This document shows positions 25,355 to 26,272 of a DNA stretch of 64,000 nucleotides, piece after piece. The position numbers and the translations under genes are program-made. Below the pieces are notes generated by a model, which was not told the origin of the DNA, did not search any database, and saw only the letters and a list, made by a program, of their open reading frames with translations. The stretch covers positions 1 to 64,000 of the IMG/VR virus record IMGVR_UViG_3300020452_000320. One strand, written 5' to 3'. The stretch's first letter is position 1, and each line of letters starts with the position of its first letter. Source of the DNA: a virus.

Positions 25355-25443
25355 TGGCTTTGAGGGAAGGGCTCGAACCTTCACGCAAAAATATTTGCAC
25401 ACAATAAACAGTTGTGCGTGTCTACCAATTCCACCACCTCAAA
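25355..25443 (-). tRNA. Unusual class II tRNA, anticodon GUU (Asn), Leu-like body
   Basis: The 89-nt minus-strand sequence folds as a complete tRNA with encoded CCA. Acceptor stem TTTGAGG/CCTCAAA (7 bp), D stem GTG/CAC with loop GAATTGGTAGA, anticodon stem CACAA/TTGTG with loop CTGTTTA, long variable arm GCAAA-TATT-TTTGC, T arm GAAGG-TTCGAGC-CCTTC, discriminator G, CCA. The loop gives C32-U33-GUU-U37-A38, so the anticodon (25409-25407) is GUU, an Asn anticodon. The D arm (TGGTGGAATTGGTAGACAC) is that of tRNA-Leu, and the long variable arm belongs to Leu/Ser/Tyr, never Asn. U1-A72, U37 and G73 are also atypical. It starts 4 nt after the synthetase-like gene. Confidence 0.88.
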
Positions 25444-25447
25444 CTAT

Positions 25448-26272
25448 TTAAGCAGCTAACTTAACATTTATTCTGTCCAGTGCAGAAATTATTCTTGTCA
25501 TACCAATTCCACCGCCAACTCTTGGAATAAAATCATATTTCAAAAATTCATTCAACTCTTTTTGTACTCTATCTTTTCCAAATAGTTTGTATAACAATTC
25601 TGCATACTCACCATCTGATATTGTTTCAAATGTATTTCTCATTTGTTCTTTGTCTGTACTTCTTTCAGCAGAACCTATTGTTTCCATACCATTTAAAATT
25701 ACGTCAATCTTTTTACTGGTAATACCATCCAAATCTTCGTTTCTTGACATATTCCAAAATGGTGAAGTAAACTCTGGAAAGTCTGTAATCATACCCCAAT
25801 CAATAATTTCTTCGTGTTCATTTTCCAATTCACTTACATTAAATTGGTCACTCCATTGATCATAAGTTTGTATTTCTAATTCTGGAAACCCCATATGTTT
25901 ACATAATTCTATTTCCATATTTTTAAGATCATTGATATCGCCAGGCATTTCAAATTCAAACATTGGAAATATTGTTTCATGTCTGCCAGGAATTGCATTT
26001 GGTTCTTGTCTATAGCTAGTGGAAACACAAAAAAACCCCTTACTAGAGGGGCGTGTTAATAGTTCATGTTCTAACCACATTTGTCCAGTTTGTGGCAGGG
26101 GCCATATATTCCCCATGTAATTATATGTTGCGACATTTTCTGGATCTTCGCAAGCCGCTAATATTGATAGTCGATTTTGTGTATGTACTTCTTCAAAACC
26201 TTTGGATAAAAAAAATGACCTCAAAAGGCCAACTGCGTGTGTAAATTTCTTAGGTGATATAAGTTGTGTCAT
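25448..26272 (-). CDS. Class II aminoacyl-tRNA-synthetase-like catalytic core (AsnRS/AsnA-type)
   Basis: A 274-residue class II aaRS fold. Motif 1 region: LLRSFFLSKGFEEVHTQ (16-32). Motif 2: VSTSYRQEPNAIPGRHETIF with R88, E90 and R97-H98, followed by FPMFEFEMPG. Motif 3: GGGIGMTR at 253-260 with R260. The pattern fits the AspRS/AsnRS/LysRS and asparagine synthetase A group; GGGIG is closest to AsnA. AsnRS is about 430-470 aa with an N-terminal OB fold; here that domain is missing. It may charge the neighbouring GUU tRNA, make asparagine, or aminoacylate something else. It follows the gp23 terminator; no promoter of its own is obvious. Confidence 0.75.
   Translation of the reverse strand: MTQLISPKKFTHAVGLLRSFFLSKGFEEVHTQNRLSILAACEDPENVATYNYMGNIWPLPQTGQMWLEHELLTRPSSKGFFCVSTSYRQEPNAIPGRHETIFPMFEFEMPGDINDLKNMEIELCKHMGFPELEIQTYDQWSDQFNVSELENEHEEIIDWGMITDFPEFTSPFWNMSRNEDLDGITSKKIDVILNGMETIGSAERSTDKEQMRNTFETISDGEYAELLYKLFGKDRVQKELNEFLKYDFIPRVGGGIGMTRIISALDRINVKLAA

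What the first reader, a model, noticed from the sequence alone, without database searches (positions are those of the whole stretch)
25355..26272. Phage-encoded tRNA next to a truncated class II synthetase-like enzyme: a possible orthogonal pair
A single tRNA with GUU anticodon starts 4 nt downstream of a gene for a class II aaRS catalytic core of the AsnRS/AspRS/AsnA group. Both lie on one strand between gp23 and a tail gene. The enzyme keeps motif 2 (R88/E90) and motif 3 (R260) but lacks the OB-fold that AsnRS uses to read the GUU anticodon; the tRNA has a non-Asn body. A matched pair, where the enzyme reads the odd tRNA body and the anticodon directs Asn codons, would be a self-contained decoding system. 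Seen: the two genes and their motifs. Known: class II aaRS motifs and AsnRS domain layout. Inferred: that they work together.
Basis: partly seen in the sequence, partly recalled or inferred. Interest (0 to 1): 0.88.

Follow-up and report, generated by a model that had tools for sequence, protein, structure and literature searches.

The report
Phage mini-AsnRS with its own tRNA
Many marine viruses of bacteria carry a stripped-down asparagine-activating enzyme right beside one very odd transfer RNA, and the company these genes keep in viruses and bacteria suggests that the pair helps make building blocks for DNA and RNA rather than proteins.

Summary
Window 25448-26272(-) encodes a 274-aa class IIb aaRS catalytic core (pocket of the AsnRS type, no OB-fold; AF2 pLDDT 91, best fold match AsnRS 1x54). 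Four nt downstream lies a tRNA with GUU anticodon. It is not asparagine synthetase A.

The pair is close to obligate in marine T4-like phages. Of 88 loci found through the enzyme, 80 have the tRNA downstream. A scan blind to the enzyme found it beside the tRNA in 74 of 74 testable contigs. The tRNA is an unusual class-II tRNA-Asn: Leu-like D arm, variable region of 6-44 nt, always U1-A72, G73 and GUU, but a pyrimidine at position 37 in 45 of 51.

The 'orthogonal decoding pair' reading is weakened. Cellular homologs (mostly 50-65% identity) have no such tRNA, and many sit in pyrimidine operons (pyrF, pyrE, pyrD). Some phages carry pyrD-enzyme-tRNA-OPRT or enzyme-tRNA-pyrF-pyrD. In Dependentiae all 7 genomes with a strong PyrF match have the enzyme (6 of 94 others do); none has PyrB.

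Best reading: an asparagine-activating enzyme that feeds pyrimidine synthesis (dihydroorotate = Asn + CO2 - H2O), with the tRNA as its Asn carrier in phages. Pairing and pyrimidine linkage are shown; the chemistry is inferred.

The parts
25448..26272 (-). Stand-alone AsnRS-like catalytic core (274 aa), called X here; phrog_29758 (unknown function), T4-GC 194 'tRNA ligase' of cyanophages
25355..25443 (-). Class-II tRNA with GUU anticodon, called tRNA* here; 5' end at 25443, encoded CCA 25355-25357
25407..25409 (-). Anticodon GTT inside the loop CTGTTTA (25405-25411); U at position 37
   Evidence: sequence
25383..25399 (-). 17-nt variable region that folds as a hairpin (family range 6-44 nt)
25358..25358 (-). 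Discriminator base G73; with U1 (25443) and A72 (25359) the invariant Asn/GatCAB-type acceptor end
   Evidence: identity elements from PMC9976931 and PMC4206432

Best explanation
X is an asparagine-activating enzyme descended from the AsnRS branch, recruited for pyrimidine nucleotide supply. In phages it is coupled to a dedicated tRNA* that carries asparagine but is not tuned for decoding. Proposed route (inferred): X forms Asn-AMP, either directly from Asn or from Asn-tRNA* by the reverse of aminoacylation. Asn-AMP reacts with bicarbonate to give the N-carboxyanhydride, and the side-chain amide attacks its C2 carbonyl to give L-dihydroorotate, which PyrD, PyrE and PyrF turn into UMP. In hosts that make Asn only on tRNA, tRNA* would be charged with Asp by the host AspRS (GUU, G73), amidated by host GatCAB (U1-A72), and drawn off by X. 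Shown: enzyme family and pocket type, tRNA structure, near-obligate pairing, pyrimidine gene linkage. Inferred: Asn as substrate, charging of tRNA*, dihydroorotate as product.
For: AsnRS-type pocket: E106 aligns with the Glu of AsnRS, not the Asp of AspRS, and L67 replaces the AspRS Lys; best PDB profile match AsnRS 2xgt, E 7e-13; best fold match 1x54. Pairing: tRNA* follows X in 80 of 88 loci, and X precedes tRNA* in 74 of 74 contigs from a scan that did not use X. Cellular operons X-pyrF-OPRT-pyrD-prs and pyrD-pyrEF-X. Phage operons pyrD-X-tRNA*-OPRT and X-tRNA*-pyrF-pyrD. Dependentiae: strong PyrF in 7 genomes, all with X, against 6 of 94 others, Fisher p 1e-7, PyrB in 0 of 101. PyrB over cut-off in 1 of 22, PyrC in 1 of 22 and CarB in 2 of 22 X-bearing genomes. 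U1-A72 is the GatCAB element; GUU and G73 are the Asn identity set.
Against: No biochemistry. Absence of PyrB is also a lineage trait: 0 of 81 Pasteurellaceae have PyrB while only 3 have X, so the phyletic argument is partly confounded. Most Patescibacteria copies and most phage copies have no pyrimidine gene within the stretch held. X occurs without tRNA* in cells and in huge phages, so the tRNA cannot be essential to the basic reaction. Invariance of GUU fits a decoding role too. I could not check whether the marine hosts lack free-Asn synthesis. No paper in the library describes this route, so the chemistry rests on my own knowledge of aminoacyl-adenylate and N-carboxyanhydride reactions.
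Confidence: 0.42

Rival explanations
1. Orthogonal decoding pair: X charges tRNA* with Asn by reading the acceptor end and variable arm, and tRNA* decodes AAC/AAU during late phage translation.
For: Near-obligate adjacency in both directions; invariant GUU although X has no anticodon domain; intact tRNA fold and CCA end; other phage tRNAs near it in some loci.
Against: Pyrimidine at position 37 in 45 of 51 and C33 in 5 of 51, against purine 37 in 41 of 45 other tRNA predictions of the same contigs; cellular X has no such tRNA; pyrimidine genes next to the pair in some phages.
Confidence: 0.22
2. Anti-defence tRNA: tRNA* replaces host tRNA-Asn cut by anticodon nucleases, and X charges it because host enzymes bind it poorly.
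For: Odd anticodon loop and body could escape nucleases; X would give independence from host AsnRS or GatCAB; phage tRNAs with this role are known in general (own knowledge).
Against: Conserved GUU keeps the usual cut site; does not explain the pyrimidine operons or cellular X without tRNA.
Confidence: 0.1
3. Regulatory subunit: X acts on the short phosphoribosyltransferase of the same operons, as the HisRS paralog HisZ does for short HisG.
For: X lies next to a very short OPRT-like gene (126-159 aa) in Midichloriaceae, P. atlantica and phages.
Against: All ATP-binding and Asx-pocket residues of X are invariant; most phages with X have no such OPRT nearby; does not explain tRNA*.
Confidence: 0.08
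4. X is an ammonia-dependent asparagine synthetase of the AS-AR kind and tRNA* is charged by host enzymes only.
For: AS-AR is the stand-alone archaeal AsnRS paralog and does match, weakly (3p8t, E 3e-4).
Against: AsnRS proper matches far better (E 7e-13); the pocket carries the AsnRS Glu, not the AspRS-like Asp/Lys set; pyrimidine operons unexplained.
Confidence: 0.1

Closest known systems
Asparaginyl-tRNA synthetase (AsnRS, class IIb)
   Same: Catalytic core, class II motifs, AsnRS-type Glu (E106) and Arg (R204) in the pocket
   Different: No N-terminal OB-fold; 18-20% identity in the structural alignments; coupled to a class-II tRNA or, in cells, often to pyrimidine genes
Archaeal asparagine synthetase related to AsnRS (AS-AR, 3p8t)
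   Same: Stand-alone AsnRS-branch catalytic core of similar length
   Different: Weak similarity (E 3e-4); not linked to tRNA or pyrimidine genes as far as I know
Asparagine synthetase A (AsnA, PF03590)
   Same: Class II core that uses Asx and ATP
   Different: No sequence match in any search
HisZ, EpmA/PoxA and GluQ-RS (metabolic aaRS paralogs)
   Same: aaRS catalytic cores that lost the anticodon domain and took on other tasks
   Different: None has a dedicated tRNA gene beside it, to my knowledge; EpmA models score below cut-off
Phage-encoded tRNAs and aaRSs of huge phages (PMC7162821)
   Same: Phage-borne tRNA and aaRS genes
   Different: There mostly tRNA sets and synthetases read as translation genes; X homologs in two such genomes lack tRNA*

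Membership tests
AsnRS (tRNA-charging) | Class II motifs 2 and 3 with ATP-binding Arg/Glu | tested here: met
   R88, E90, R260 invariant in 52 sequences
AsnRS (tRNA-charging) | AsnRS-type amino-acid pocket (Glu in motif 2 strand, no AspRS Lys) | tested here: met
   E106 and L67 by alignment to AsnRS and AspRS
AsnRS (tRNA-charging) | OB-fold anticodon-binding domain | tested here: not met
   274 aa, single domain, fold match covers only the catalytic part
AsnRS (tRNA-charging) | Score over the family's curated cut-off | tested here: not met
   TIGR00457 17 bits against 342.6
AsnRS (tRNA-charging) | Charges a tRNA with Asn | not testable with these tools
   needs an assay
Asparagine synthetase A | Match to PF03590 or AsnA structures | tested here: not met
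AS-AR | Closer to AS-AR than to AsnRS | tested here: not met
   3p8t E 3e-4 against 2xgt E 7e-13
Elongator tRNA-Asn | GUU anticodon, G73, U1-A72 | tested here: met
   51/51; second set: U1-A72 in 56 of 56 with that base, G73 in 57 of 57
Elongator tRNA-Asn | Class I body with short variable loop | tested here: not met
   variable region 6-44 nt, hairpin with compensatory changes
Elongator tRNA-Asn | U33 and purine (t6A-able A) at 37 | tested here: not met
   A37 in only 6 of 51; C33 in 5 of 51
Enzyme of pyrimidine synthesis | Operon with pyrD, pyrE or pyrF in unrelated lineages | tested here: met
Enzyme of pyrimidine synthesis | Presence tracks PyrF where PyrB is absent | tested here: met
   Dependentiae 7/7 against 6/94; not corrected for relatedness
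Enzyme of pyrimidine synthesis | Loss of PyrB follows gain of X | tested here: inconclusive
   Pasteurellaceae lack PyrB with or without X
Enzyme of pyrimidine synthesis | Makes dihydroorotate | not testable with these tools
   needs an assay

The most novel reading that the evidence does not exclude
A previously unknown route to pyrimidines: an AsnRS-derived enzyme turns asparagine and bicarbonate into dihydroorotate in place of CarAB, PyrB and PyrC, and marine phages feed it through a dedicated, non-decoding class-II tRNA-Asn, so that a tRNA serves as an amino-acid carrier for nucleotide synthesis.
Probability: 0.33. Interest if true: 0.96.

Novelty: categorically new. Interest (0 to 1): 0.86.

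Why it matters
It is an unusually tight enzyme-tRNA gene pairing outside the core translation machinery, it is abundant in marine T4-like phages (at least 598 matching stretches encode a relative of the enzyme), and it was labelled only 'tRNA ligase'. If the pyrimidine reading is right, it adds a second way to build the pyrimidine ring and a new job for tRNA. If the decoding reading is right, it is a natural orthogonal AsnRS-tRNA pair small enough for engineering. Either outcome can be settled by simple assays on two genes.

Tried and rejected
AsnA origin: rejected. ARAGORN's odd anticodons (AAT, CTC, ACG, ATC, TTT, 4-base) in several loci: misfolds caused by the long variable arm; all read GUU when folded properly. 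Search for the tRNA elsewhere in cellular genomes with the covariance model: only tRNA-Leu and tRNA-Ser came up among the best hits read. Huge-phage copies: no class-II GUU tRNA in trans among the hits read. P. atlantica as proof that X replaces PyrB: withdrawn after the family control showed that all 81 Pasteurellaceae sampled lack PyrB. Literature searches found no account of this enzyme as a pyrimidine enzyme.

Full report
WHAT IS THERE. The window (part of a 65.6-kb IMG/VR virus record) holds on the minus strand an ORF of 274 aa at 25448-26272 and a tRNA gene at 25355-25443, four bases apart. I call them X and tRNA*. X matches PF00152 and PHROG 29758, unknown function. In Prochlorococcus phages P-SSM7, P-SSM2 and P-SSM5 its homolog (72-74% identity) is annotated only 'tRNA ligase' (T4-GC 194 in PMC3037559).

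THE ENZYME. Class II motif residues R88, E90, R260 and the pocket residues Q61, T62, Q64, E68, H98, E106, R204 are invariant across 52 phage and cellular homologs. AF2 gives pLDDT 91, pTM 0.89. Foldseek's best match is P. horikoshii AsnRS 1x54 (E 4e-17), over the catalytic domain only. With the 52-sequence profile the best solved relative is AsnRS (2xgt, E 7e-13); archaeal AS-AR is weak (3e-4); AsnA does not appear. By alignment X has Glu (E106) where AsnRS has Glu and AspRS has Asp, and Leu (L67) where AspRS has the side-chain-binding Lys (the roles of these residues are from general knowledge of class IIb enzymes). So X is an AsnRS-branch catalytic core without an anticodon domain.

THE tRNA. 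Of 88 loci that encode X (87 database loci and the window) 80 have a parseable tRNA* in the 700 nt after X, mostly 7-14 nt after the start of the stop codon; the others are cut by contig ends (L013, L058, L077), lack it (L049), or are the four huge-phage-type copies. Among 51 distinct sequences: U1-A72 51/51, G73 51/51, GUU 51/51; loop CTGTTTA 29, TTGTTTC 7, CTGTTAA 6, CCGTTTA 5, CTGTTTC 3, CTGTTCA 1; encoded CCA in 36; variable region 6-44 nt, folding as a hairpin in nearly all. Covariation: 99.0% of pair cells form, 22 of 25 pairs have double changes, slid controls 40-57%; repeated on 57 distinct sequences from an independent scan (98.9%; that alignment was fitted to the model). The longest variable regions exceed the extra-arm range in the standard numbering (up to 16 extra positions, PMC9976931). 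Position 37 is a pyrimidine in 45 of 51. Among 45 other tRNA predictions of the same contigs 41 have a purine there, and some of the exceptions are probably misread tRNA*. G73 plus the anticodon is the bacterial Asn identity set, and U1-A72 is the element by which GatCAB recognises Asp-tRNA(Asn) (PMC9976931, PMC4206432).

PAIRING FROM BOTH SIDES. A pattern scan of IMG/VR for tRNA* alone (D-arm end plus anticodon arm, no use of X) gave loci of which 74 encode X directly upstream. The other six begin within about 130 nt of the tRNA, so X could not be seen; no locus with enough upstream sequence lacked X. The covariance model confirms these as full tRNAs, but for two cut by ends. So tRNA* was not found without X. 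The cassette stands at different genome positions (gp23-gp3 in P-SSM7 and the window; beside purH and gp61/nrdA in P-SSM2), so shared location alone does not explain it.

CELLULAR RELATIVES AND PYRIMIDINES. A GTDB scan found at least 110 loci. Some are phage-like contigs in MAGs with tRNA* (L088, L089, L093, L094, L147). The rest, mostly 50-65% identical, lie in Patescibacteria, Dependentiae, Midichloriaceae, Bacteroidota, a Chlamydia and a complete Pasteurella atlantica chromosome, with no tRNA* nearby or among the best genome hits. Recurrent neighbours are pyrimidine genes: X-pyrF-OPRT-pyrD-prs in Midichloriaceae, X-pyrF-OPRT with a pyrD-like gene upstream in P. atlantica, folD-pyrD-pyrEF-X in Chitinophagaceae, X-pyrEF-pyrD in a myxococcote (Pfam PF00215, PF00156, PF01180 for L113 and L137; the others by blastp or by reading). 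Phages show the same: L214, L215 and L222 pyrD-X-tRNA*-OPRT; L247 and L248 X-tRNA*-pyrF-pyrD; L228-L233 partly pyrD-X-tRNA*. At least 16 loci of the tRNA*-only scan also carry an OPRT-like or pyrD-like gene. In Dependentiae (101 genomes) PyrB is absent from all, a strong OMP-decarboxylase match (over 170 bits) occurs in 7, and all 7 have X against 6 of the other 94 (Fisher p 1e-7, not corrected for relatedness); in 6 of 7 the two lie within about 3 kb. In 22 X-bearing genomes PyrB, PyrC and CarB exceed cut-off in 1, 1 and 2 (controls 14, 11 and 14 of 14). Caution: all 81 sampled Pasteurellaceae lack PyrB while 3 have X, so absence of PyrB is partly a trait of the lineages in which X lives, and several of the genomes are incomplete MAGs.

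HISTORY. In a quick tree of 110 X sequences tRNA* needs four changes against about 30 for shuffled labels. Nearly all tRNA*-bearing copies fall in one marine phage group next to the Midichloriaceae/Pasteurella/Rhodospirillaceae operon copies; L094, whose neighbour L147 also has tRNA* by the covariance model, lies apart. The midpoint root is only for drawing, but tRNA* looks like an addition to an enzyme that also exists without it.

MECHANISM. Shown: enzyme family and pocket, tRNA anatomy, near-obligate pairing, pyrimidine linkage. Inferred: X activates Asn. Asn holds five of the six ring atoms of dihydroorotate, and Asn + CO2 - H2O equals dihydroorotate exactly. Aminoacyl adenylates react with bicarbonate to N-carboxyanhydrides, and the side-chain amide of such an Asn derivative can close the six-membered ring (general chemistry, my own knowledge, no paper read). 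That would let one AsnRS-like enzyme stand in for CarAB, PyrB and PyrC. Where hosts make Asn only on tRNA (PMC4206432 lists 81 of 186 GatCAB-only genera without AsnA or AsnB), a phage tRNA that host AspRS and GatCAB accept but ribosomes use poorly would supply X with Asn. This would explain why GUU, G73 and U1-A72 are invariant while positions 33 and 37 and the body drift, and why cells do not need tRNA*. I could not test whether SAR11 or Prochlorococcus lack free-Asn synthesis.

VERDICT. Observation confirmed and stronger than reported; interpretation partly supported. I rate the system as categorically new because I know of no AsnRS-tRNA cassette set among pyrimidine genes; the specific chemistry is a hypothesis, and the decoding reading is not excluded.

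Noticed in passing
L082 (P-SSM2, AY939844.2): The record annotates tRNA-Asn about 2 kb downstream of X (164094-164179), but the sequence 12 nt after X holds the class-II tRNA; the annotated coordinates look wrong. P-SSM5 has it right behind X.
   Followed up: partly
L009, L010, L012, L029, L036, L042, L044, L056, L060, L093: ARAGORN misreads tRNA* as Ile(AAT), Glu(CTC), Arg(ACG), Lys(TTT), Asp(ATC) or with a four-base anticodon because of the long variable arm; automatic annotation will hide this family.
   Followed up: yes
L218-L256, e.g. L220, L226, L252: A short (about 230 aa) DHO_dh-like protein is widespread in marine phages, often without X in the stretch held; shorter than usual dihydroorotate dehydrogenases.
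   Followed up: partly
L061 5935-6327, L214 1845-2225, L226 2-361: A very short (126-130 aa) phosphoribosyltransferase-like phage protein, similar to those in the cellular X operons; the L061 copy has no Pfam hit.
   Followed up: partly
L084-L087 (735-kb huge phage LR756501 and relatives): Huge phages carry a divergent X (45-50% identity) without the class-II tRNA.
   Followed up: partly
L039, L063, L064, L068, L069, L012, L058: ARAGORN reports tmRNA-like genes in several of these marine phage contigs (tags such as AVNEDFALAA).
   Followed up: no
G001, G187, G207 (Pasteurellaceae): Three of 81 Pasteurellaceae genomes carry X in a family that lacks PyrB altogether; they may have regained pyrimidine synthesis.
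   Followed up: partly
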